From assembly GCF_017979475.1 (NCBI RefSeq), contig NZ_JAERIT010000013.1:1-37530 (forward strand): DNA of 37,530 nt, written 5' to 3'. Positions 1 through 37,530 of the stretch are shown here, in pieces. The stretch comes from Helicobacter pullorum NCTC 12824 (GTDB lineage Bacteria > Campylobacterota > Campylobacteria > Campylobacterales > Helicobacteraceae). The notes beneath the pieces are model-generated. The model was not told where the DNA came from and made no database searches. It saw only the letters and a list, made by a program, of their open reading frames with translations. The number at the start of each line of letters is the position of its first letter. Position 1 is the first letter of the stretch. The position numbers and the translations under genes are program-made.

Positions 1-51
1 ATAATACTTCAACCTAGTGTTTTTGATTTCATAAAAAGAATCTTGGGCTAA
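1..51 (+). CDS. Possible 3' end of a gene cut by the window edge
   Basis: The first frame reads 16 sense codons ending in ...SVFDFIKRILG and then TAA. The residue mix is protein-like and the stop lies 31 bases from the end of the facing leftward gene, which fits a convergent pair. Nothing else can be said, because the rest lies outside the window. It could equally be a chance open frame. Confidence 0.3.
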   Translation: MILQPSVFDFIKRILG

Positions 52-82
52 GTTATGCAGTTAAGGTTCTCTTGACTACTCT

Positions 83-181
83 TTACTCTTCGTCTTTATC
101 AATATCTCTAATAGATATTAATCCAACAATAGGTATAAGAAAAATAGCCAATGCCATAAATATGGCTGTAATTGTTCCCAT
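83..181 (-). CDS. Tiny single-pass membrane protein, 32 aa
   Basis: This short frame begins MGTITAIFMALAIFL and ends in an acidic tail, SIRDIDKDEE. Residues 3-23 form one hydrophobic helix, so it is very likely an inner-membrane peptide. A good ribosome site (GGAGG, about 7 bases before the ATG) precedes it. Its ATG overlaps the stop of the upstream 72-residue frame by one base (TAATG), so the two are probably translationally coupled and work together. I do not recognise the family. Small accessory subunits of transporters or oxidases often look like this, but that is only a guess. Function unknown. Confidence 0.6.
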   Translation of the reverse strand: MGTITAIFMALAIFLIPIVGLISIRDIDKDEE

Positions 182-399
182 TATAAATCCTCCAAATCAT
201 TAATTTTTTTATTAATGCGTTTTGATACAATAAGTATCAAAACACTTAAAAGAATAATTAAAAGAATAGATAATGCTAACAACCAACTTTCTGTCTTTGC
301 ATAATTTGTAACTCCCCAGCCAATAATGGCTAAAAAAGTTGCAACAAATATGCCAAGCCAAAACTTTAAAAGATTGATTTTTTCTTTTATTTTATCTAT
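181..399 (-). CDS. Small two-helix membrane protein, 72 aa, apparent ATA start
   Basis: The frame reads (M)DKIKEKINLLKFWLG..., with two hydrophobic helices at about residues 11-30 and 39-59, then a basic and charged tail (SKRINKKINDLEDL). There is no ATG, GTG or TTG before codon 40. The ATA at 397-399 has an AGGA ribosome site just ahead of it and a perfect TATAAT -10 box 18 bases upstream, so I place the start there. Either ATA is used as a rare start or an original ATG has mutated to ATA, which would cut expression. It overlaps the next small gene by one base. Family not recognised. Confidence 0.5.
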   Translation of the reverse strand: MDKIKEKINLLKFWLGIFVATFLAIIGWGVTNYAKTESWLLALSILLIILLSVLILIVSKRINKKINDLEDL

Positions 400-416
400 T
401 TTTCCTAATTTTTACT

Positions 417-422
417 ATTATA
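417..422 (-). promoter_or_regulatory. -10 box for the small membrane-protein pair
   Basis: The leftward strand carries an exact TATAAT here. A start point about 7 bases on would leave a leader of roughly 11 bases before the ATA codon, with AGGA inside it. There is no clear -35 box, as is usual in Helicobacter promoters. Confidence 0.5.
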
Positions 423-446
423 CCAAAATTCTCTATAAACAAAAAA

Positions 447-491
447 AGCCCCCTTTTAGCAAAAAGGATAAAATCCTTTTAAAAGGAGGCT
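447..491 (-). terminator. Strong leftward hairpin terminator without an obvious gene
   Basis: AGCCCCCTTTT pairs with AAAAGGAGGCT (10 of 11), and inside it AAAAGGAT pairs with ATCCTTTT around an AAA loop. On the leftward strand the stem is followed at once by seven T, the classic intrinsic terminator form. On the rightward strand no U-run follows. No leftward protein gene ends here, so it may end a small RNA started near 530, or shield the small membrane genes from antisense reads. Confidence 0.6.
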
Positions 492-609
492 AATTAGGGA
501 GAGAACAAACAAATAATTGAATATTCCCTCAACTTAAAATTTTGTAATTGATAAGTTTTAGAAAACTTTTAAAAAACTTCGTTAAAATTCTTCTAAAAAA
601 GTTGCAAAA
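492..609. other. Intergenic stretch before the CoA-binding gene
   Basis: This is very AT-rich. A 7-bp palindrome (AAGTTTT/AAAACTT) sits at 553-568 and a TAAAAT-like box near 584 could serve the rightward gene. No good ribosome site precedes its ATG. On the leftward strand AGGGA and TCCCT could pair ahead of the terminator. No tRNA or other known RNA was recognised. Confidence 0.3.
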
Positions 610-1047
610 ATGATTAATCAAGATTTACAAATAAAACAAATTTTAGAACAATCTAAAACCATTGCTATTTTGGGGCTTTCTCCCAGTGAAGATAAGCCAA
701 GTCATAAAGTGGCAAAATATCTTTTGGAAAAAGGTTATAGAATAATCCCTATTTATCCAAAAGGTGGAGAGATTCTTGGAATGAAGGTTTATCGGAGTTT
801 GCAGGAAGTTTTTTGTGATGAATCTATCAGGCAAAACAGAGGAGTTGATATTTTGGATATTTTTCGCAAAAGTGAGGCACTTTTGGGGATAATTCAAGAG
901 ATTTCAGAGTTAGAAAACAAGCCAAAATGCGTTTGGGCACAGCTTGGGATTCAAAGGCAAGGGGCAAAAGAGGAATTGGAAGCAAAAGGGATAATGTATT
1001 TTGAAAATTTATGTATCAAATTAGAACATCAAAGGTTGTGTAAATGA
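610..1047 (+). CDS. CoA-binding Rossmann-fold protein (YccU family)
   Basis: This 145-residue protein matches the stand-alone CoA-binding family related to the N-terminal domain of succinyl-CoA synthetase alpha. The glycine-containing loop AILGLSPSEDKPSHKVAKYL lies near residue 18, and IIPIYPKG follows the second strand, as is typical. The later part (VDILDIFRKSEAL, then WAQLGIQ) also fits. It should be cytoplasmic. The real substrate or partner of the family is not established. Its stop overlaps the ATG of the threonine dehydratase gene by four bases (ATGA), so the two are co-translated. Campylobacter jejuni, as I recall, has the same pair. Confidence 0.85.
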   Translation: MINQDLQIKQILEQSKTIAILGLSPSEDKPSHKVAKYLLEKGYRIIPIYPKGGEILGMKVYRSLQEVFCDESIRQNRGVDILDIFRKSEALLGIIQEISELENKPKCVWAQLGIQRQGAKEELEAKGIMYFENLCIKLEHQRLCK

Positions 1048-2252
1048 TTGCTTTAGCAAAAATAATGGACGCAAGTCGCAGATTAAAAGGCGTGGTAGAA
1101 CATACAAAGTTGGCTTTTGCACCAAAACTTAGTGAATTAAGTCAAGCAAAAGTCTATGTCAAACAAGAGAATCTCCAAAATACCGGTTCTTTCAAGCTAA
1201 GAGGAGCCTTTAATAAAATCGCCACTCTCACTCAAGAAGAGCGGAAAAATGGGGTGATTGCTTCAAGTGCTGGGAATCATGCACAAGGTGTGGCATATAG
1301 TGCAAAGCATTATGGCATTAGAGCGGTTATTGTAATGCCAGAATCCACTCCATTGCTTAAGGTTATGGGGGTTAAGGAGCTTGGAGCAGAAGCAATTTTG
1401 CATGGAAACAATTATGATGAAGCTTACGCTTATGCTTTGGAGTATGCACAAAAGAATAATTTGCATTTTATTCACCCTTTTGCCGATGATGAGGTGATTG
1501 CAGGGCAGGGGACAATCGCATTAGAAATGATAGAAGATCAAAATAATCTAACAACTATTGTTGTTCCTATAGGTGGAGGAGGATTGATTTCTGGAATTGC
1601 TGCAGCTTATAAGCAAATGTTACCAAGTGTGAGGATAGTAGGGGTTGTCGCACAAGGTGCGCCGGGAATGTATCATTCTTTTTATAAAAAGGCAATCCAA
1701 ACCACAAAATCTGTGCGGACAATTGCCGATGGTATTGCTGTGCGTGATGTGAATGAGAGAAATTTTGATTATATTTTAGAGAGTGTAGATGAGATTGTAA
1801 TGGTGGATGATGAGGAAATCGCTAATGCAATTTTGTATTTGTTAGAAAAACAAAAATTAGTAGTAGAGGGTGCTGGGGCAGCTGCTGTGGCGGCTCTTTT
1901 GCACCATAAGTTCAAAATTGCTCAAAATGAATCTGTGGGGTTGGTTTTGAGCGGTGGAAATATTGATGTTACAATGCTTGGAGTGATTATTGAAAAAGGC
2001 TTGGTTCGCTCTCATCGCAAAATGCGTTTTAGTGTTGTTTTGATTGATAAGCCCGGAAGTTTGCAGTCTCTTAGTGATTTGCTTTCAAGATTGGGGGCAA
2101 ATATTGTAAAAATCGATTTTGATAGGACTTCCACTTCTTTGGGGTATGGCGATGCAAATGTGGTTGTGGTGATTGAAACAAAAGGCAAAGAGCATCAAGA
2201 TGAAATTCGAAGAGAATTGCATAAAGATGGCTATAAATTTGTTGAAATGTAG
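1044..2252 (+). CDS. ilvA: Threonine ammonia-lyase (threonine dehydratase)
   Basis: This enzyme deaminates L-threonine to 2-oxobutanoate, the first step toward isoleucine. It is PLP-dependent and cytoplasmic. The PLP lysine is K51 in TGSFKLRGA, the phosphate-binding glycine loop is PIGGGGLISG near residue 175, and SGGNID lies near 303. A C-terminal ACT-like domain (about 328-402, RFSVVLIDKPGSLQSL) should give allosteric control. At 402 residues it matches the shorter form with one ACT domain. The start overlaps the preceding stop. A second in-frame ATG at codon 8 is possible, since neither has a strong ribosome site. Confidence 0.93.
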   Translation: MIALAKIMDASRRLKGVVEHTKLAFAPKLSELSQAKVYVKQENLQNTGSFKLRGAFNKIATLTQEERKNGVIASSAGNHAQGVAYSAKHYGIRAVIVMPESTPLLKVMGVKELGAEAILHGNNYDEAYAYALEYAQKNNLHFIHPFADDEVIAGQGTIALEMIEDQNNLTTIVVPIGGGGLISGIAAAYKQMLPSVRIVGVVAQGAPGMYHSFYKKAIQTTKSVRTIADGIAVRDVNERNFDYILESVDEIVMVDDEEIANAILYLLEKQKLVVEGAGAAAVAALLHHKFKIAQNESVGLVLSGGNIDVTMLGVIIEKGLVRSHRKMRFSVVLIDKPGSLQSLSDLLSRLGANIVKIDFDRTSTSLGYGDANVVVVIETKGKEHQDEIRRELHKDGYKFVEM

Positions 2253-2255
2253 TTA

Positions 2256-3452
2256 ATGCTAGTAGAAAGTAGAAAAATTTATTTTTATCTATGTGTTTTA
2301 TTGATTGTAGATTTTTTGATACTTTTGTGGGTTGGCAAGAATCTAAGCATTAGCTATGATGAAGCAAGTCATTTTTTTGAACCTTTGGATTTTGGTGGCT
2401 TTCTAAGCAATTTGAGTGTTTTTTTGTTTGGGCAAAATGATATTGGACTAAGAATGCTTTTTTTGCTTTTGCATTTGTGCAATGCAGTTTTAATGTTTAT
2501 TTTTGCCAAAGGATTCTTGAAGCGTCCAAGTGATGCACTTTTTTGTGTTTTGTTGTTTTTGTTGCTACCCGGAGTGAATGCAGCTGCAATCCTTATTTCT
2601 AATAGCGGAATTATTATTTTTCTTACTTTGTTGTTGTGTATTTTGTATCAACAAACGCATAAAATTCCTTATTGGCTTTTGTTGATTATGGCTTTTGTGG
2701 ATAAAAGTTTTGCTTTGGTTTTTTTGGCATTAATTTTTTATGGGATTGCACAAAAAAATACATTTTTAGTTTTTCTTTCGTTGATATTTTTTGCGCTTAA
2801 TATGTATTTATTTGATTTAGAAATTGGAGGACACCCAGCAGGATATTTCATTGATACTAGTGGGCATTTGCTTTTGATTTTTTCACCCTTGGTTTTTTTG
2901 TATTTTTTATACGCACTTTATCGTTTTTATAACTCTAAAACAAAGCCATTGATTTGGTATATTTCTATTGTTGCATTAGGTTTTATTCTTTTTTTGTCTT
3001 TGCGTCAAAAGGTGGAAACTGAAACTTTTGCACCATTATTGATAGTGGGGATTCCTTTGATGGTGAGTTTGTATTTTTCGGGGCTTAGAGTGAGATTACC
3101 TGAGTTTAAATCGCGTTATAAAATACCTTTTGGGATAACTTTGTTGGTTTTATTGGCAATGGTTTTGGTTTTGCTATTTTCTAAGCCCTTATTTGCATTA
3201 TTTAGCAGCAATCAAGAAGAATATTTTGCATACCGCCATTATTTGGCAAAAGAATTGGCTCAAAATCTAAAAGAGCAGAATATTTTTCAAGTCAATACAA
3301 ATGAAAGAATGCAAAAGCGTTTAAGGTTTTATGGAATCAATCAAGGTGGAAATGTCAAGATTACTACTCATTTTGTAAAAAATGCAAAAGAGATTCCTAT
3401 TTTTTATTATGGCAAAAAGGTTGCAGTGTTTTATGTCCAAAAAAGCCTTTAG
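2256..3452 (+). CDS. Multi-pass membrane protein, GT-C/ArnT-like glycosyltransferase fold
   Basis: The 398-residue protein has about ten hydrophobic helices and a short soluble C-terminal part (about 325-398). After the first helix comes SISYDEASHFFE. An Asp-Glu in this first outer loop (D35, E36) is the hallmark of GT-C transferases of the GT39/GT83 type, which move sugars from lipid carriers. That suggests transfer to protein or lipid at the outer face of the inner membrane, but the substrate cannot be read. Campylobacter has a membrane protein in a similar place near ilvA. It starts 3 bases after ilvA and overlaps the pseudopilin start by 20 bases. Confidence 0.6.
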   Translation: MLVESRKIYFYLCVLLIVDFLILLWVGKNLSISYDEASHFFEPLDFGGFLSNLSVFLFGQNDIGLRMLFLLLHLCNAVLMFIFAKGFLKRPSDALFCVLLFLLLPGVNAAAILISNSGIIIFLTLLLCILYQQTHKIPYWLLLIMAFVDKSFALVFLALIFYGIAQKNTFLVFLSLIFFALNMYLFDLEIGGHPAGYFIDTSGHLLLIFSPLVFLYFLYALYRFYNSKTKPLIWYISIVALGFILFLSLRQKVETETFAPLLIVGIPLMVSLYFSGLRVRLPEFKSRYKIPFGITLLVLLAMVLVLLFSKPLFALFSSNQEEYFAYRHYLAKELAQNLKEQNIFQVNTNERMQKRLRFYGINQGGNVKITTHFVKNAKEIPIFYYGKKVAVFYVQKSL

Positions 3453-4107
3453 CTTATTTGAAATTTTACTTGTTTTGGCAATTATTGGGATTTTGGGTGC
3501 AGTTGGCTATGTGATTTATCCACAATCTTTATTAAATCTTGCACAAGAGCAGATTGTGAATCATCTAAATTACACGCGTTTTTTGGCACTCAATTCTTCT
3601 AAGCAAATTACGCAAAATGCTTTTTGTCAAAGTGATTTTTGTCAAGAAGAGAGAGAAAGATACCAAGAGAGTTTTTGGAGATTGCAGTTTGCTGATTTGA
3701 AAAATATTGGTTGGGCTTATTCTGTTTTTAGCGATAGTGCAAGGAGCTCTAAGACAAAAAATTTTGATGATAGACCTATGGATTCTTTTGAAGTTGCTAG
3801 GGATTCTATGAGTGGAAAATATTTGAGTGTTTATACTTATAATAATACCAAATTTGCAAATGGTTTAAGGGAGGGTGATTTATCTATATCTAAGCGGTAT
3901 GGAGTGAGTAAGGTGCAAATGTATGGAGGATGCGGAAAGCAAAATGGAGGAAGAATACTTTTTGATGATTTGGGGTTTGTAAGATGTAAAAAATCGGGAG
4001 AAAAGGTAAGTTATCCAGATAGCGAGGTAATTTTGGAATTAATGGATAATTTTGGTGCATCGGTGAGAATTTGTATTTCTGAAAATGGTTTGGTTGAAAA
4101 GCGTTAA
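3433..4107 (+). CDS. Pseudopilin-like protein with prepilin N-terminus
   Basis: The start at MSKKAFSLFEILLVL gives a short basic leader followed by the type IV prepilin motif: cleavage before Phe6, with Glu at +5, then a hydrophobic helix to about residue 31. Longer in-frame starts exist upstream but would spoil the short leader. The residue before the cut is Ala where Gly is normal, so processing may be slow. The remaining 190 residues form a polar, Cys-containing domain (CQSDFC; later GGCGKQ and RICI). No other pilus or type II secretion genes are nearby. It overlaps the membrane transferase gene by 20 bases, so the pair is likely one transcript. Exact role unknown. Confidence 0.65.
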   Translation: MSKKAFSLFEILLVLAIIGILGAVGYVIYPQSLLNLAQEQIVNHLNYTRFLALNSSKQITQNAFCQSDFCQEERERYQESFWRLQFADLKNIGWAYSVFSDSARSSKTKNFDDRPMDSFEVARDSMSGKYLSVYTYNNTKFANGLREGDLSISKRYGVSKVQMYGGCGKQNGGRILFDDLGFVRCKKSGEKVSYPDSEVILELMDNFGASVRICISENGLVEKR

Positions 4108-4121
4108 ATTAAATAAAATTA

Positions 4122-4130
4122 TGTTACAAT
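4122..4130 (+). promoter_or_regulatory. Extended -10 promoter for ksgA
   Basis: TGTTACAAT gives a TGn extended -10 with TACAAT. A start of transcription near 4137 would place AAGG (4146-4149) in a short leader, which fits translation beginning near 4158 and not at the later GTG. Confidence 0.45.
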
Positions 4131-4157
4131 AAAAAAATATTTTTTAAGGTTTGAAAT

Positions 4158-4955
4158 ATCAAAACAATTGATAAAAATAGACTTGCAAAAAAGCATTTTG
4201 GACAGAATTTTTTACAAGATGAGAATGTGTTATTGCAGATTGTCCAATCCATTCCCAAAGAGGCTCTTGATTTGGAGCTTATTGAGATTGGGGCTGGCTT
4301 AGGTGATCTAACAAATAAGCTTTTAGGCTTAGGGAATATCACTGCTTATGAGGTCGATGAGGAATTGCTACCTTATTTGAAAGAGCGTTTTAAAAAAGCC
4401 CTTGAGAGTAAGCAATTGGAACTTAAAATTGGCGATGTAATGGAAATTTGGAAGGGAAATAGTTTGCGGGATAAGCCTTATTTTCTTATTTCAAATTTGC
4501 CTTATTATATTGCAACATTGTTGGTAATAAAAGCCATTAAAGATCCTTTGTGTAAGGGCTGTGTCGTGATGACACAAAAAGAAGTTGCTTTAAAATTTTG
4601 TGCTAGTGAGAATCAAAGTGATTTTAGTGCTTTGAGTGTTTTAACACAGAGTGTTGGGGAGGCAAAATTGCTTTTTGAAGTCCCACCAGTTGCCTTTGTG
4701 CCACAGCCAAAAGTAACTTCTGCGGTATTTTTGATACAAAAGAATCAAATATTGCCAAGCGATTTTTTGGAGGCATTAGAGGGATTGCTAAAGATTTCTT
4801 TTAACGCCCCAAGAAAAACGATTTTTAATAATCTTTCTAAAAACTATTCCAAACAAAAAGTTTTGGAAGTTTTAGAAGATTTGCAAATAACGCCCAATAA
4901 AAGACCTCATGAGATTGATACTGCCACTTATCACCGACTTTTGAAAATTTTATAA
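4158..4955 (+). CDS. ksgA: 16S rRNA dimethyladenosine transferase; non-AUG start
   Basis: KsgA dimethylates two adjacent adenosines near the 3' end of 16S rRNA, using SAM, during small-subunit maturation. The family's N-terminal signature KKHFGQNFLQDE is encoded at 4188-4223. Next come the SAM motif EIGAGLGDLT, the acidic YEVDEEL and the catalytic NLPYYIA. The first standard start in frame is GTG at 4225-4229 context (codon at 4227), which would delete the signature. Upstream, the frame is open to a TGA at 4152 and holds only ATC (4158) and ATT (4167). ATC lies 8 bases after AAGG, so I choose it (265 residues, normal length). The gene sits 13 bases before rnj. Confidence 0.85.
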   Translation: MKTIDKNRLAKKHFGQNFLQDENVLLQIVQSIPKEALDLELIEIGAGLGDLTNKLLGLGNITAYEVDEELLPYLKERFKKALESKQLELKIGDVMEIWKGNSLRDKPYFLISNLPYYIATLLVIKAIKDPLCKGCVVMTQKEVALKFCASENQSDFSALSVLTQSVGEAKLLFEVPPVAFVPQPKVTSAVFLIQKNQILPSDFLEALEGLLKISFNAPRKTIFNNLSKNYSKQKVLEVLEDLQITPNKRPHEIDTATYHRLLKIL

Positions 4956-4968
4956 AAGGCGGATTGTC

Positions 4969-6945
4969 ATGGAAGAAAAAGAAACGCAAAATAATACACA
5001 AAATACAAATTCACAAAAAGAGCCAAATAAAAGGCGTTTTAAACCACGAAACCAACAAGATAGAACAAGAGAAGAAAAACAAGGGCAAGAGGGACAAAGT
5101 CGCAATCACTATAGGCACAAAAAATCTCAAAATAATTCTGGACAAAATGGAGAAAAATTCCACAATAGAAATGGCGGAAATAGAGAGGTCAATCAATCTA
5201 ATTTGGAATTAAGAAAAGCTGTTGAAGTGAATGCAAAAGTCCATCAAAATTCTTTGACTACACACTCTCAAGTGCAATTTAATCCAAATGGAAAGGTAAG
5301 AATCACTCCTATTGGCGGGCTTGGTGAAATTGGCGGAAATATGACGGTGATTGAAACTCAAAATTCTGCAATTATTATTGATGCAGGAATGAGTTTCCCT
5401 GATGGCGATATGCACGGGATAGATATTTTGGTGCCAGATTTTAGCTATCTTGAAGTGATAAAAGACAAAATTGCAGGGATTGTGATTACCCATGCACATG
5501 AGGATCATATTGGTGCGATGCCTTATTTGTTTAAAAAATATCAATTTCCTATTTATGGGACTCCGCTTCCTTTGGGATTGATTGGTTCTAAATTTGATGA
5601 GCATGGTTTGAAAAAATATCGCTCGCTTTTTCGCGCAGTAGAAAAAAGAAAGCCCATTAGAATTGGTGAATTTGAGATTGAATGGATACACATTACTCAT
5701 TCAATCGTAGATTCTAGTGCATTGGCTATCAAAACAGAGGCTGGAGTGATATTCCACACAGGTGATTTTAAAATCGATCATACACCCATTGATGGTTATC
5801 CAACAGATTTGAATCGAATCGCATATTATGGAGAACAAGGCGTTTTATTGCTGCTTAGCGATTCTACAAACTCCCATAAAGCAGGATATACTCCTAGTGA
5901 GGCAAGCGTTGGACCCGCATTTGATATGTTGTTTTCGAGGGCTAAGGGGCGTGTGATTATGAGTACTTTTAGCTCTAATATCCATCGTGTTTATCAAGCA
6001 ATCCAGTATGGATTGAAATATGGTAGAAAAATCTCTGTAATTGGACGCTCTATGGAGAAAAATTTGGAAATTGCAAGGACTTTGGGTTATATAGATTTGC
6101 CACAAAATATTTTTATTGAAGCACACGAAGTGGCAAAATATGCCGATGAAGAAGTTTTGATTGTCACAACAGGTAGCCAAGGGGAGACAATGAGCGCCCT
6201 TTATCGTATGGCAACTGATGAACATAGACATATTAAAATCAAGCCAAGCGATATTGTGATACTTTCAGCAAAAGCGATTCCGGGTAATGAAGGTTCTGTT
6301 TCAAATATTTTGAATTTTATTAATAAAGCTGGTGCAAAAGTGTATTATCAAGATTTTAGTGAGATTCATACAAGTGGGCATGCTGCACAAGAAGAGCAAA
6401 AGTTGATGTTAAGACTTGTGAAGCCAAAATTCTTCTTGCCTGTGCATGGAGAGTATAATCATATTTTAAAACACAAAGAAACAGCCATTTCTTGTGGGGT
6501 TGATGAAAAAAATATTTATCTTATGGAAGATGGTGATCAAATAGAAATCGCACACAATTATTTACGCAAAGTAAGAAGTGTGAAAACTGGTAAAATCTAT
6601 ATTGATAATCAAATCAATGCATTTGTTGCAAATGATGTGGTGCTAGATAGGCAGAATCTTGCTGAAAATGGTATAGTGATTGTAGTCGTCCAAATAGATA
6701 AGGCAAAGAATGCAGTCATCGGTAAGCCAAGAATACAAACAATGGGAATTATTGCAAATAAAGATATTTTGAGCTTTAATAAAGAAATTGAGGAGTTTTT
6801 CTCACTTTTTGTTAAAAATTGCAAAAAAGAACTTTATAGCAGTCAAAAAGCTATGGAAAACGAGATTCGCAATGCTTTAAGAAAGCTGATGTTTAAAAAA
6901 ACCAAGCGTTATCCTACTATTATGCCTAATGTGATTTTTAGCTAG
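4969..6945 (+). CDS. rnj: Ribonuclease J
   Basis: RNase J is the main mRNA-decay nuclease of Helicobacter (endo- and 5'-3' exonuclease) and in H. pylori works with the helicase RhpA. This 658-residue protein has a metallo-beta-lactamase core with the zinc motif HAHEDHIGAMPYL at about 175, FHTGDFKID, and the beta-CASP part with VTTGSQGE and LPVHGEYNH. The first 105 or so residues are polar, rich in K, N, Q and R and probably disordered; this extension is typical of the Helicobacter enzyme. An overlapping frame from 4964 is a shadow of this extension. It follows ksgA closely, so rRNA maturation and RNA decay genes are probably co-transcribed. Confidence 0.93.
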   Translation: MEEKETQNNTQNTNSQKEPNKRRFKPRNQQDRTREEKQGQEGQSRNHYRHKKSQNNSGQNGEKFHNRNGGNREVNQSNLELRKAVEVNAKVHQNSLTTHSQVQFNPNGKVRITPIGGLGEIGGNMTVIETQNSAIIIDAGMSFPDGDMHGIDILVPDFSYLEVIKDKIAGIVITHAHEDHIGAMPYLFKKYQFPIYGTPLPLGLIGSKFDEHGLKKYRSLFRAVEKRKPIRIGEFEIEWIHITHSIVDSSALAIKTEAGVIFHTGDFKIDHTPIDGYPTDLNRIAYYGEQGVLLLLSDSTNSHKAGYTPSEASVGPAFDMLFSRAKGRVIMSTFSSNIHRVYQAIQYGLKYGRKISVIGRSMEKNLEIARTLGYIDLPQNIFIEAHEVAKYADEEVLIVTTGSQGETMSALYRMATDEHRHIKIKPSDIVILSAKAIPGNEGSVSNILNFINKAGAKVYYQDFSEIHTSGHAAQEEQKLMLRLVKPKFFLPVHGEYNHILKHKETAISCGVDEKNIYLMEDGDQIEIAHNYLRKVRSVKTGKIYIDNQINAFVANDVVLDRQNLAENGIVIVVVQIDKAKNAVIGKPRIQTMGIIANKDILSFNKEIEEFFSLFVKNCKKELYSSQKAMENEIRNALRKLMFKKTKRYPTIMPNVIFS

Positions 6946-6961
6946 AATCTTGGAGATTCTA
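6943..6961 (+). terminator. Small hairpin at the end of rnj
   Basis: TAGAATCT and AGATTCTA flank a 3-base loop, and the left arm overlaps the rnj stop codon. No T-run follows, so it would be a weak terminator or a 3' stabiliser. Another TAGAATC follows after two bases. The same inverted pair occurs after rpoZ. Confidence 0.35.
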
Positions 6962-7012
6962 GACTAGAATCCTAAACTTCTATTCTCTTGGTATTGAAAA
7001 ATAAAATAATAT

Positions 7013-7120
7013 TAAATAATAATTAAATTACTCCATATAATAATATTAAATGGCTTTCATTATCATTTTTATTATTTTTTAAGTCAATAATAAATAAAAT
7101 CCATTCTTATTATTATTTTA
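7013..7120 (+). promoter_or_regulatory. Probable Fur-controlled promoter region
   Basis: The stretch is built of AT-rich sites such as TAATAATTAAATTA, TATAATAATATTAAAT and TTTCATTATCATTTTTATTA, and TTATTATTATTTTA just before the ribosome site. These resemble both the classic Fur box (GATAATGATAATC) and the H. pylori box (TAATAAT-n-ATTATTA), but none is a perfect copy. Position in front of a TonB-dependent receptor makes iron control likely. Individual operators cannot be resolved by eye in DNA this AT-rich. Confidence 0.45.
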
Positions 7121-7132
7121 GGAGTGTTATTA

Positions 7133-9178
7133 ATGTTAAAAATATCCAAAAGTAGGTATGTATCTTATATTTCTTTAGCTTTGATTTTTTGCGGGGTAGG
7201 GGTAAATGCAGCGGAACAATATCGATTGGATACTTCAGTAGTTAGTGCAAGTGGTTTTTCTCAAGATGTGAAAGATGCACCAGCAAGTATTTCAGTAATT
7301 ACTAAGGAAGATTTAGAGGGGCGTCCATTTAAAGATTTGGGTGAGGCTTTAATGGGGGTGCCGGGGGTAGATGTTTCATTAAATAAATTGGGAAGTTATG
7401 ATTTTTCTATCCGTGGATTTAGCTCTAGTAGTGGATATGTTTTGGTGCTTGTTGATGGGAAAAGGCAAAATAGTATCCAAGGGCTTTATGATGATGGATT
7501 TGGTGGCGTTGAAAGCACATTTTTGCCACCATTGTCAATGATTGAGAGGATTGAGGTTATTAGGGGTCCTGCTTCTACTCTTTATGGTGGAGATGCAGTT
7601 GGTGGGGTTGTCAATATCATTACAAAGAAAAATCCAAGCCAATTTAGTGCTTCTATTGGCTTTGATTCTACTTTTCAGCAACACCCTAAAATTAATGGAA
7701 ATTCAAGGGGGATTAATGGATATATGGCAATTCCTTTGGTAAAAGATAAGCTTTCTTTGGCATTAAGGGGAAAATATTATACCAAGGGTGATACAGCAAT
7801 TACCACGCCAACAGGGGATTATGCAAGCCATAGTGCAGGGGAAATGAGGCTTGGAAATATCGGTGGTAAGCTTAATTGGACAATCAATGAACAAAACAAT
7901 GTTTATTTAGATGCAGAACATTCAGTAGCCTATACCGCTTCTTTGGCTAGTAGCTCTGCTGGGACTTATTCGCCAAGGAATGTTTATAAAGACAGGGTGC
8001 TTTTAAACCATGATGGGTATTATCATTTTGGTTCTATTAATACTTATGCACAAGCAAATTTCACAGATGATAAAACTATTGATGCACAAGGGACAAGTTA
8101 TATTGTAGAGAGTAAAGGGGTTTTGCCTTTTGATTTTAATGCAATGGGTTCTATGACTTTAAGTGCAGGGGTGCAATATCTCTATGAAAGCTACTTAAAC
8201 AATAATAGCGATGCTAAATATGCAGAGATTAAGGGGCATTTATTTGAGCAAAATACAATAGCACCTTATGCGGAAGCAGAATATTATATTACCGATGATT
8301 TAATCTTAACAGGAGGGATTCGCTACGCGCATAGTGATTTATTTGATGGTGAAGTAACCCCTAGAGGTTATCTAGTGTATCATCTCACAGAAACTATTAC
8401 ACTTAAAGGCGGTGTGGCAAAGGGATATAGGACGCCAGAGGTGAGACAGCTTTTTGATGGAATCTATCGTCTTAATAATCGCAATAATCAAGGTGTTTAT
8501 GGAAATTCAGATTTAAAGCCAGAGACAAGCACAAACTATGAAATTGGAGTAATTTTTGAATTCCCAAGCTATGCAAATTTAAGTGTTACAGGTTTTCAGA
8601 CAGATTTTAGAGATGCAATTGAATCAGAGGATTTTAATCAAGGGGATATGTTGCCTAATGGAAGCATTTGCCAAGGACCAGAAGGGACAAATGGGGAAAA
8701 TGCTTGTAGATTTTTCTCTAATGTAGCTAAAACACAAGTTAAAGGGATTGAAGTGAGTGTGCAGACTGCAAAATGGTATGGTTTGAGTGCAGATTTGAGT
8801 TATACCTTTATGGATAAGAAATACAAAAGTGGTGTGAATAATGGGCAAAGATTTGCCGATACACCTAGGCATATTGCAACACTAAAGCTTAATTATACCA
8901 ATGGTAAATTTAGCTCATACCTTAGGGGGAGTGGCAGATATGATTCGTTGATTGATGAAACAAGAAAATATGAAGATTATTATGTTGTAGATTTGGGTGT
9001 TAGCTATAAGATGACAAAAAATTCAAGTATAGCATTAGCAATTAATAATTTACTTGATAAAGATTTTTATAAGCCTTATGAAAGTGTTGGTAGGGGTGGT
9101 GCTATTTCTTATGCAAATAGTTATCAAGATTATATCGATGGTAGGAATTTTTGGATTAGTTATAAATTAGATTTTTAA
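7133..9178 (+). CDS. TonB-dependent outer-membrane receptor, CirA/FepA-like
   Basis: This 681-residue protein takes up iron chelates or similar ligands across the outer membrane using TonB energy. A signal peptide (MLKISKSRYV..., cut near residue 26, VNA-AEQ) is followed by a TonB-box-like DTSVVSASG at 33-41. The plug domain runs to about 160 (DAPASISVITKEDL, IRGFSS, IERIEVIRGPASTLYGGDA), then the beta-barrel, with NLLDKDFY near the end and a terminal Phe. The plug most resembles CirA-type catecholate receptors, but the ligand is not proven. GTG three codons earlier is possible; I prefer the ATG because TTAGGAG lies 8 bases before it. The PepSY gene follows 12 bases after the stop. Confidence 0.88.
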   Translation: MLKISKSRYVSYISLALIFCGVGVNAAEQYRLDTSVVSASGFSQDVKDAPASISVITKEDLEGRPFKDLGEALMGVPGVDVSLNKLGSYDFSIRGFSSSSGYVLVLVDGKRQNSIQGLYDDGFGGVESTFLPPLSMIERIEVIRGPASTLYGGDAVGGVVNIITKKNPSQFSASIGFDSTFQQHPKINGNSRGINGYMAIPLVKDKLSLALRGKYYTKGDTAITTPTGDYASHSAGEMRLGNIGGKLNWTINEQNNVYLDAEHSVAYTASLASSSAGTYSPRNVYKDRVLLNHDGYYHFGSINTYAQANFTDDKTIDAQGTSYIVESKGVLPFDFNAMGSMTLSAGVQYLYESYLNNNSDAKYAEIKGHLFEQNTIAPYAEAEYYITDDLILTGGIRYAHSDLFDGEVTPRGYLVYHLTETITLKGGVAKGYRTPEVRQLFDGIYRLNNRNNQGVYGNSDLKPETSTNYEIGVIFEFPSYANLSVTGFQTDFRDAIESEDFNQGDMLPNGSICQGPEGTNGENACRFFSNVAKTQVKGIEVSVQTAKWYGLSADLSYTFMDKKYKSGVNNGQRFADTPRHIATLKLNYTNGKFSSYLRGSGRYDSLIDETRKYEDYYVVDLGVSYKMTKNSSIALAINNLLDKDFYKPYESVGRGGAISYANSYQDYIDGRNFWISYKLDF

Positions 9179-34830: not shown

Positions 34831-34886
34831 TGTTATAATTATTTTATTTTTATTTCATCAATTTTATCTCAATTTAGTAGTATAAT
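34831..34886 (+). promoter_or_regulatory. Two -10 boxes upstream of the exoprotein gene
   Basis: TGTTATAAT at 34831-34839 is a TGn extended -10 with a perfect hexamer, and a second exact TATAAT is at 34881-34886. Leaders would be about 114 and 67 bases. A further TATAAT at 34823-34828 overlaps the spacer of the first. Which is used cannot be told. Confidence 0.5.
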
Positions 34887-34896
34887 TCTCTTTATG

Positions 34897-34935
34897 AATT
34901 TATAAATAAAAAGACTTTTCTTTATTTTATAAATT
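34897..34935 (+). promoter_or_regulatory. Leader hairpin before the exoprotein gene
   Basis: AATTTATAAATAAA pairs with TTTATTTTATAAATT, giving 14 pairs with one bulged base and a 10-base loop (AAGACTTTTC). It lies in the leader between both promoter boxes and the ribosome site AAAGGAGAT. Being all A-T, it is temperature-sensitive in principle. Confidence 0.45.
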
Positions 34936-34959
34936 TAAATATCTTATAAAGGAGATAAA

Positions 34960-37530
34960 ATGTCAAACAATCCTAATTCTGTCGTAGTATGGGGGGGGGG
35001 GGCAAATAAGCCTTTAACTAACTCTTTAAAAACTCTCAAAAACTCAAAACCCCAAAAACTTACTAAGAATCCAAAGAAGATTCAAGAATCCCAAAAAGAT
35101 TCCAAAACCATTAGTAAAATCGGTATTTCTATCATCGCTAGTGTGTTATTGTCTCAAAACTTAGCGGCTTTACCTGCTGGGGGTAAATTTATCCACGGAA
35201 GCGGAAATATCAAAGTTGATGGCAAGACCAATACAATGGATATCACAGGAAATAACAGAAACCATGTAATTGCGTGGGGTGGTGGATTTAATATTAATAA
35301 TGGAGAAAGGGTAAATTTTAACGGAAGTGGCAAAGCCTTTTTGAATCTTGATTATTCCAACAAAGCCTCTAAGATATTAGGAACTCTCAATGGCAATGGC
35401 AATAATATCTATCTAGTCAATCCAAGTGGAGTGTTGATAGGAGAGGGTGGGAAGGTCAATAATGTAGGTCGGTTTGTCGCTTCTACTTCAAGTTTGGATA
35501 AAGCACTCACTAAATTTGTAAATGAAGCCAAACAAAATGGCGATCAAAATGCAGTGTATTTCTCCCCTGTGTTTAGTCGTGGTAGCTTGAAGGGCAATGT
35601 TATCAATATGGGGACTATTAATGCAAATAATATTATGCTAGTAGGTAATGTAGTGAGGAATCTAACCTCAAATGGCACCAAAGATGTCCAAGGAAAATAC
35701 AATAATACTGGTAATTTGCATATAATAGGAAGTGAAATCTTTTTGGATGTTGAGGGTGTTGCAAATAAGAAAAATATTCGGCTTACAGGAACTAATGATG
35801 TTCTCAATTCTACACCTAAAATTACAGTCCAAATGGCAATGAGCACTTTTAAAACTAATGGGCACAAGGATTGGATTACAAAAGATTATAGTATTGATGG
35901 ATCACAATTTGGAACAGGGAGTTATTATGTTGATCGTATCATTACCATTGGTGGCACAGGGGGTTGGAATGATTTTGCAAATGCTTGGAATGAAAATAAG
36001 GGACAAACAAGAAGCATAAATGAATTTAAATTAATCAGCAATCTTGATTTCAAAAATAGTCCCGATTTTGTTTCTGTTGGCAAACCGCAAGGTGCAGGGT
36101 TTAATAAAATCTTCAATGGTAATGGCTATAAAATGTCTAATATCACGCTTAATAATGATGACGCTTCAAACAATGGCGGTATAACTATCGCTGGTGTGTT
36201 TAACAAAATCGGTGGAGGCACTATCAAAAATCTAACTATTGATACAATCAATGCAAATATTACAGCAAATAGTGCAGATGTATTACATTTTGGTGCTTTT
36301 GCAGGGCAAATCAATGGTGGAACTATCGAGAATGTTACACTCAATAACATTAATATAAAAGGAACTATAAATTACAACAGCCCAAATAGTGGATCAAATG
36401 ATATGGGCTATATGGGCGGATTTGCAGGCGTGATTAGCAATAATGGAAACATTAGCATTAACAATGTTGTTTTGAATAATATTAAGCAAGTGTTTGTGTA
36501 TTCTAATCAAAGTATTGGAGCAACATTGTATGTAGGTGGATTTGCAGGGAGAATTGAAAATGCAAGTAATGGTTCTAGCACAAATATTAATAATGTGATT
36601 TTAAATAAAATCGGGACTTTACGCACAGATGTGGTTACAGGTTATGGAATTGGTAGTGCAAATCCATTGGTTGCTGGTTTTGTTCCATGGCTTGGATCGG
36701 GTAATTCTATTAGCAATGCTTCTCTTTATTTCACCGAAAATTCAAAACTAATGCCGGCACTTTTGAGAGATTTCAATGGGGATAGTCGCGACAAAGTCCA
36801 TAGTTTTTATCATCAAATGAATGGTCTTGGTAGCTCTATAAGTAATATCAATATTTTTTATAATAATAAGGCAACAAACCCAACTTATAATCGTCCTGAT
36901 ATAGATACGGGATATGGTTATGTTAGAGATGGAAATAATGCCCAAAGTGATAGAATGTATTATACGGCTAAAGGTTTGATTGAGGGTATTCGTTCGGGCT
37001 ATACTGGTTACTATGTGACGCCAGAAACAAATGGTTATTACAATGGCAAAGTGAATTTTACTGCTTATGATGCAGTATCAAATGATATGGGGTTTGATGG
37101 CAGGGTAAAGGCATGGCATCCAAATATAACTGCTAGTAATTACAATTACTCTTGGGTGAGACAAGAGAGAATCTCAAATACTTATCCTATGAATGGTAGT
37201 CTCAACACAAGCAGTGATTACACGACTTTGATTAATACATATCTCCCTCAAATTATCGATGATATTTTGGAAGCAGATTATGGGGTAACTATCGAAAAAG
37301 AAGATGGCTCATCAACACAAGCTACTTTGAATACTATCATCACACAACTTAATAACATTCTCAATGCAATCAATAAGGGAGAGGGCGAAGGAACTGCAGA
37401 TGGTAAAATTACTAATTTCTTAAATAATATTTTGATTGATAAAGATAATCCACAGCTAAAAGAATCTATCAAACAATCCATTAATTTCTTGCGTGCTTTT
37501 TATGAGGGGTATAATGGTAGCAACAGCAAT
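34960..37530 (+). CDS. Large two-partner-secretion exoprotein (FHA-type adhesin), phase-variable, cut by window edge
   Basis: The frame is open for 857 codons to the right edge with no stop. Residues 1-70 form a long signal peptide: a 53-residue basic N region (KPQKLTKNPKKIQES) and a hydrophobic core GISIIASVLLSQNLAA, cut near A70. Next is a haemagglutinin-type TPS domain: LPAGGKFIHG, IAWGGGFNIN, VNFNGSGKAFLNL and IYLVNPSGVLIGEGGKVNN, equivalent to the NPNGI motif. From about residue 408 come GLUG-like repeats (IAGVFNKI, GAFAGQI, GGFAGVI, GGFAGRI) with NVTLNNI-type linkers, predicted beta-helix. No TpsB porin is in the window. A G12 run at codons 11-15 controls the frame. A strong ribosome site, AAAGGAG, is present. 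Confidence 0.85.
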   Translation, partial: MSNNPNSVVVWGGGANKPLTNSLKTLKNSKPQKLTKNPKKIQESQKDSKTISKIGISIIASVLLSQNLAALPAGGKFIHGSGNIKVDGKTNTMDITGNNRNHVIAWGGGFNINNGERVNFNGSGKAFLNLDYSNKASKILGTLNGNGNNIYLVNPSGVLIGEGGKVNNVGRFVASTSSLDKALTKFVNEAKQNGDQNAVYFSPVFSRGSLKGNVINMGTINANNIMLVGNVVRNLTSNGTKDVQGKYNNTGNLHIIGSEIFLDVEGVANKKNIRLTGTNDVLNSTPKITVQMAMSTFKTNGHKDWITKDYSIDGSQFGTGSYYVDRIITIGGTGGWNDFANAWNENKGQTRSINEFKLISNLDFKNSPDFVSVGKPQGAGFNKIFNGNGYKMSNITLNNDDASNNGGITIAGVFNKIGGGTIKNLTIDTINANITANSADVLHFGAFAGQINGGTIENVTLNNINIKGTINYNSPNSGSNDMGYMGGFAGVISNNGNISINNVVLNNIKQVFVYSNQSIGATLYVGGFAGRIENASNGSSTNINNVILNKIGTLRTDVVTGYGIGSANPLVAGFVPWLGSGNSISNASLYFTENSKLMPALLRDFNGDSRDKVHSFYHQMNGLGSSISNINIFYNNKATNPTYNRPDIDTGYGYVRDGNNAQSDRMYYTAKGLIEGIRSGYTGYYVTPETNGYYNGKVNFTAYDAVSNDMGFDGRVKAWHPNITASNYNYSWVRQERISNTYPMNGSLNTSSDYTTLINTYLPQIIDDILEADYGVTIEKEDGSSTQATLNTIITQLNNILNAINKGEGEGTADGKITNFLNNILIDKDNPQLKESIKQSINFLRAFYEGYNGSNSN
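34991..35002 (+). repeat. Poly-G tract (12 G), slipped-strand phase switch
   Basis: Twelve G lie 31 bases inside the exoprotein frame and code for WGGG. With 12 the frame is open. With 13 it reads GGC AAA TAA and stops at once; with 11 it reads CAA ATA AGC CTT TAA and also stops. Runs of this length are known switch points in Helicobacter and Campylobacter. Confidence 0.9.

What the first reader, a model, noticed from the sequence alone, without database searches (positions are those of the whole stretch)
34960..35040. G12 tract inside the signal-peptide region makes the large exoprotein an on/off switch
The run of 12 G sits at codons 11-15. The length seen keeps the frame open for 857 codons, while one G more or less leads to a stop within five codons. 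The slip site lies in the poorly constrained N region of a long signal peptide, so small residue changes (multiples of three) would be tolerated. Known: poly-G slippage is the main phase-variation device in Helicobacter/Campylobacter. Inference: surface adhesin expression is switched between cells.
Basis: partly seen in the sequence, partly recalled or inferred. Interest (0 to 1): 0.75.

Follow-up and report, generated by a model that had tools for sequence, protein, structure and literature searches.

The report
Poly-G on/off switch for surface exoproteins
A run of twelve Gs near the start of a large secreted-protein gene in a Helicobacter-type bacterium very probably works as a random on/off switch, a known kind of device that this genome has copied in front of four related genes standing in different switch positions.

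Summary
In detail: G12 lies at window 34991-35002, 31 nt from an ATG with a good ribosome site. The frame stays open to the contig end; in the other two frames a stop follows within five codons. Three paralogues in the same genome have a poly-G at the identical place behind a nearly identical 31-nt leader, at G13, G11 and G13, so all three frames occur. Three congeners share the layout (G11, G11, G14). The protein is a two-partner-secretion TpsA exoprotein (EtpA/HxuA/HMW1-like secretion domain); one TpsB gene was found. In six of seven copies no ATG/GTG/TTG lies between tract and signal-peptide core. The H. canadensis homologue HCAN_0344 is in print as a phase-variation candidate with reads of G11-16, and a C. 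coli filamentous haemagglutinin is in that species' core phasome: a new member of a known kind. Less expected: leader and tract are far more alike than the genes behind them, three 3' ends are 94-99% alike, an orphan leader exists, and a second ATG touching the tract is open in the G11 copy, a possible weak third state. Switching in this strain and adhesion were not shown.

The parts
34840..34959 (+). upstream region shared with two paralogues and an orphan copy (86-87% identical to the two paralogues over aligned bases, with large gaps against one of them); carries AGGAG at 34950-34954; promoter not established
   Evidence: the consensus scan found 4 promoter-like sites in 401 bases against 2.4 expected, so no promoter is claimed
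34960..34990 (+). leader, MSNNPNSVVV and the T of the next codon, from ATG1 to the tract; 94-100% identical in the four paralogues
34989..34991 (+). ATG2, a second ATG in another frame whose G is the first G of the tract; present in all five copies in this genome; of the four copies with a gene body, in frame with the body only in the G11 copy
   Evidence: no Shine-Dalgarno-like purine run before it (sequence)
34991..35002 (+). G12 tract, the slip site
35003..35106 (+). Lys/Asn/Ser-rich N-terminal extension after the tract; its length differs between copies
35107..35175 (+). signal-peptide hydrophobic core and likely cleavage region (TISKIGISIIASVLLSQNLAALP)
   Evidence: hydropathy; conserved in alignment A1; cleavage not predicted by a tool
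35164..35940 (+). TPS secretion domain, fold of TpsA exoproteins (range = model residues 54-312 aligned to EtpA)
34960..37530 (+). TpsA-like exoprotein gene, cut by the contig end

Best explanation
The G12 run is a translational phase-variation switch. During replication the run gains or loses a G by slipped-strand mispairing (inferred). At the length seen, ribosomes starting at ATG1 read through into the signal peptide and a TpsA exoprotein, which a TpsB pore would export and probably hold on the cell surface by a C-terminal disulfide loop (inferred from homologues). In the other two frames translation stops within five codons of the run and no exoprotein is made from ATG1. The genome carries this switch on four related genes whose runs stand at different lengths, so each cell would show its own subset of exoproteins. 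Shown here: tract, frames, homologous tracts of other lengths, secretion-domain family, a TpsB gene, lack of a usable downstream start in the window copy. Inferred: slippage in living cells, surface display, adhesion.
For: G12 in a 34% GC window, 0.0008 expected. Three paralogues with tracts at the same position, G13, G11, G13. Congeners G003 G14, G004 G11, G005 G11. The leader pattern hits 4 of 121 genomes of the family, all in one genus. No in-frame ATG/GTG/TTG between tract and core in 6 of the 7 copies checked. 37 tracts of G9 or more in the genome; of the 23 touching an open frame of 150 codons or more, 22 have G on the coding strand and 14 lie at the 5' end. TpsB over the Pfam cut-off in the genome and in 6 of 6 genomes tested, which are the six with TpsA relatives. 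TPS domain. Printed support: HCAN_0344, G14, reads G11-16 (PMC2823697); C. coli 'filamentous haemagglutinin' G8-10 in 90% of 10 strains (PMC6321876).
Against: No reads, no second strain of this species and no expression data were available; tract lengths are from assemblies, the own one a 26-contig draft. The H. canadensis reads are 454 reads, which the authors say can be problematic at homopolymers. In G005 and in C. coli LMG 9860 an ATG directly follows the tract, so the switch may leak there. C. coli C8C3 has no G run of 7 or more in the fetched DNA. The relatives in G002 and G017 whose starts are in the fetched DNA show no tract at this place (several others are cut by contig ends). 13 of 19 genomes of the genus have no match at all. 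Pfam gave no family for the window protein at 0.001 and NCBIfam none at 1.
Confidence: 0.91

Rival explanations
1. The switch has three levels: ATG1 in frame gives full expression, ATG2 in frame gives weak expression, and the third frame gives none.
For: ATG2 touches the tract in all five copies of this genome; in the G11 copy it opens a frame that runs 1,225 codons past the tract to the contig end. Putative initiation codons in two frames before a repeat tract are described for H. influenzae lic2A (PMC3116884 passage).
Against: No purine-rich ribosome site stands before ATG2. The copies share the leader by descent or conversion, so five copies are nearly one observation. In the three congeners the ATG before the tract is in the same frame as ATG1.
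Confidence: 0.25
2. The tract only tolerates drift and the protein is made anyway, from a start downstream or by frameshifting on the G run.
For: An ATG directly after the tract in G005 and in C. coli LMG 9860; the H. canadensis annotation placed the start after the repeat (PMC2823697).
Against: In 6 of 7 copies no ATG/GTG/TTG lies before the hydrophobic core; the leader is kept at nucleotide level in copies whose bodies have diverged. Frameshifting was not tested.
Confidence: 0.06
3. The differing tract lengths are assembly or sequencing errors and the tract is stable.
For: Draft genome in 26 contigs; homopolymers are error-prone (general knowledge).
Against: Long tracts at the same place in four paralogues and three other genomes of the genus, with G on the coding strand in 22 of 23 cases genome-wide. 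Errors can change a length but do not make the tracts.
Confidence: 0.03

Closest known systems
HCAN_0344, H. canadensis putative filamentous haemagglutinin domain protein (PMC2823697; parts 1 and 2 of 4 of the text read)
   Same: Homologous TpsA gene with poly-G (G14, reads G11-16). G003 is very probably this genome: its two G14 tracts in the fetched stretch, two genes apart, fit HCAN_0344 and HCAN_0346.
   Different: One copy there, four plus an orphan leader here; about 43% identical after the tract. The paper rated it only 'putative' because the annotated start lay after the repeat, whereas the conserved leader here argues for the upstream start.
C. coli HxuA-group filamentous haemagglutinin (PMC6321876; one section and passages read)
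   Same: Filamentous haemagglutinin with a G tract, range G8-10, in 90% of 10 strains. That L109 belongs to this group is my inference.
   Different: In LMG 9860 (L109) the run is A9G10 and an ATG follows it; in C8C3 (L104) no long tract is present.
B. pertussis fhaB (PMC7446907; passages read)
   Same: A TpsA gene switched by a G10 tract, with mixed lengths in all 49 isolates of that study.
   Different: That tract is at nt 1078 of the gene, so truncated fragments with a TPS domain may still be made; here the tract lies before the signal-peptide core and the off state gives only a short peptide.
H. influenzae lic2A (PMC3116884; passage read)
   Same: Putative initiation codons in two frames before a repeat tract.
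   Different: CAAT repeats in another kind of gene; ATG2 here is untested.
N. meningitidis tpsA1 with silent tpsS cassette (PMC5231331; passages read)
   Same: A TpsA gene that takes up segments by gene conversion.
   Different: Here conversion is only suggested by 5' and 3' ends that are alike around diverged middles.

Membership tests
Simple-sequence-repeat translational phase variation | Long mononucleotide tract between a start codon and the body of the gene | tested here: met
Simple-sequence-repeat translational phase variation | Other frames end early and no downstream start rescues | tested here: met
   met for the window copy and 6 of 7 copies checked; G005 has an ATG right after the tract
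Simple-sequence-repeat translational phase variation | Tract length differs between homologues | tested here: met
   12, 13, 11, 13 in one genome; 14, 11, 11 in congeners
Simple-sequence-repeat translational phase variation | Reversible length change within a clone with change of expression | not testable with these tools
   no reads, no further strains, no expression data
TpsA exoprotein (two-partner secretion, type Vb) | N-terminal TPS secretion domain | tested here: met
TpsA exoprotein (two-partner secretion, type Vb) | Partner TpsB pore in the genome | tested here: met
   605 codons, PF03865 38.1 bits over cut-off 22.7; POTRA_2 17.4 bits, below its cut-off 24; about 3.7 kb beyond the end of the C11 paralogue, not beside the window gene
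HMW1/HxuA-type anchored TpsA | Cysteine pair at the C-terminus | tested here: inconclusive
   C-x11-C in 6 of 6 homologous C-termini examined; the window gene is cut before its end, so for it the feature is not seen
ESPR-type extended signal peptide | Match to a curated ESPR model | tested here: inconclusive
   no ESPR family among Pfam matches up to E 5 for the window protein; HMMER filters drop weak matches

The most novel reading that the evidence does not exclude
The upstream region, leader and G tract form a portable launch cassette that is kept uniform among TpsA genes (and exists as an orphan), while 3' ends are also kept uniform. The cassette would give each gene three expression levels through two ATGs in different frames, and the like ends would let diverged middles be exchanged between switch positions by recombination, combining phase variation with antigenic variation.
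Probability: 0.2. Interest if true: 0.62.

Novelty: new member of a known kind. Interest (0 to 1): 0.4.

Why it matters
It bears, by comparison, on the start-codon doubt that left HCAN_0344 a 'putative' candidate: a start before the tract is conserved in four paralogues and three congeners. It shows a family of large secreted proteins under separate slip switches in one genome, with only one TpsB found (genome about 93% complete), which would make cells of one clone differ in surface proteins. The shared ends suggest how such families may stay switchable while their middles diverge.

Tried and rejected
Pfam gave no TPS family for the window protein, and of the three TpsA proteins given to NCBIfam only C. 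coli L104 matched TIGR01901; the profile search against solved structures and the fold comparison settled it instead. The contig tail was searched in the genome to find the rest of the gene: apart from itself only a 47-base match at 81%, so the C-terminus stays unknown; comparing its last residues by eye with the C11 and C16 paralogues suggests that roughly 200-230 residues are missing. A consensus promoter scan was uninformative. Eight paper searches were made; those for Helicobacter phase variation with filamentous hemagglutinin, poly-G with two-partner secretion in Campylobacter (0 papers), and H. pullorum hemagglutinin gave nothing closer than the papers cited. PMC539331 (section on virulence and passages) reports FHA-like genes near TpsB genes in C. 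lari and C. coli RM2228, with no tract discussed at them in what I saw. No paper search was made for the uniform leader, the orphan or ATG2, so nothing is claimed about their being in print. No scan of metagenome contigs was available, so tract length among strains of this species was not tested. G-quadruplex and RNA-structure roles were considered and not tested.

Full report
Observation. The run of 12 G is at 34991-35002, 31 nt into an ATG-started frame at 34960 preceded by AGGAG. It is the only G or C run of 7 or more in the window. The frame is open to the window end, 857 codons, and the window is the whole 37,530-bp contig C6, so the gene is cut. The other two frames end 1 and 4 codons after the tract. 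Composition predicts about 0.0008 such G runs per window.

Paralogues. A protein search of the same genome found three more long genes of the family. All three carry a poly-G at the identical place behind a nearly identical leader: G13 (C16, open frame 1,238 codons), G11 (C16, cut by the contig start, 1,234 codons) and G13 (C11, 1,452 codons). With the window's G12, all three frames occur in one genome: one copy open from ATG1, two closed, and one closed for ATG1 but open for a second ATG that touches the tract. A fifth place (C20) has upstream region, leader and G13, but at most 17 open codons after it. The genome is 93% complete, so further copies may be missing.

Other species. Of 19 genomes of the genus searched, 6 including the own have relatives. 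The leader pattern occurs in 4 of 121 genomes of the family, all in this genus: the own (4 places), G003 (G14), G004 (G11) and G005 (G11). The named record of H. sp. 11-8110 (L103) carries the same locus as G004. G002 and G017 fit H. burdigaliensis and H. valdiviensis, whose loci in the named scan carry the same frames; those of their TpsA frames whose starts are in the fetched DNA show no tract at this place, and several others are cut by contig ends. In C. coli LMG 9860 the run is A9G10 followed by ATG; in C. coli C8C3 no G run of 7 or more is present in the fetched DNA. By ATG1, G005 is open and G003 and G004 are closed.

No rescue. Seven copies with a gene body were checked (window, two on C16, C11, G003, G004/L103, G005). 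In 6 of 7 no ATG, GTG or TTG stands in frame between the tract and the hydrophobic core; in the window the first is a GTG inside the core. G005 is the exception. The two C. coli copies were not in this count.

A uniform 5' module. Among the four paralogues the 31-nt leader is 94-100% identical. The 120 nt upstream are 86-89% identical over aligned bases among three of them, with large gaps against C16a, and differ in C11. The DNA after the tract, over 280 codons, is only 62-77% identical and its fourfold sites 46-71%. BLASTN finds little or nothing in the middles, but the 3' ends of C11, C16a and C16b are 94-99% identical over 146-792 bases. The window gene stops before that part. The orphan is 97% identical to C16a over 120 nt upstream, but has the GGACCC ribosome region of C11. 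This points to gene conversion or shared recent origin of the ends; selection on the leader is not excluded.

Genome context. The genome has 37 G tracts of 9 or more preceded by another base. All 37 were examined: 14 at the 5' end of an open frame of 150 codons or more, 5 near the 3' end, 3 internal, 1 with C on the coding strand, 14 touching no such frame. The frames are stop-to-stop and unannotated, so these classes are rough.

What is known. PMC2823697 (parts 1 and 2 of 4 read) lists HCAN_0344, putative filamentous haemagglutinin domain protein, G14, reads G11-16, as 'putative' because its annotated start lies after the repeat. PMC6321876 (one section read) lists a filamentous haemagglutinin with G8-10 in the C. 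coli core phasome. B. pertussis fhaB varies at a G10 tract (PMC7446907, passages). The kind is therefore known.

What is left. Slippage and expression in this organism, the role of ATG2, whether the middles are exchanged, and adhesion were not tested.

Noticed in passing
L075 (G000:C7:4500-8700, minus strand; tracts at C7 about 6,564-6,659): A long exoprotein-like open frame (711 codons, signal-peptide-like core, no Pfam hit up to E 0.1) has two poly-G tracts, G13 and G12, 71 nt apart at its 5' end: a possible double switch.
   Followed up: partly
L087 (G000:C20:152200-156200), 1993-2090: Orphan copy of the TpsA upstream region, leader and G13 tract with no exoprotein behind it, followed by an oxidoreductase-like frame (my reading of the sequence).
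   Followed up: partly
L103, L104, L109, L113 (C-termini of the TpsA frames): C-terminal motif CI.SDNAKTN.PC shared between Helicobacter and C. coli TpsA proteins, a likely surface anchor.
   Followed up: partly
L113 3286-5901 (minus) and L116 2748-5357 (minus): A protein frame of about 870 codons with a signal-like N-terminus lies between tpsA and tpsB, with a small cytochrome c-like gene; the L113 one had no Pfam hit up to E 0.1. Role unknown.
   Followed up: no
L102 3367-3378 and L110 3267-3278: In H. burdigaliensis and H. valdiviensis a G12 tract lies roughly 600-700 nt upstream of a TpsA frame that itself starts without a tract.
   Followed up: no
G000, 5 of 37 tracts: Tracts near the 3' end of open frames, as in the C-terminal phase variation proposed for H. 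canadensis (PMC2823697).
   Followed up: no
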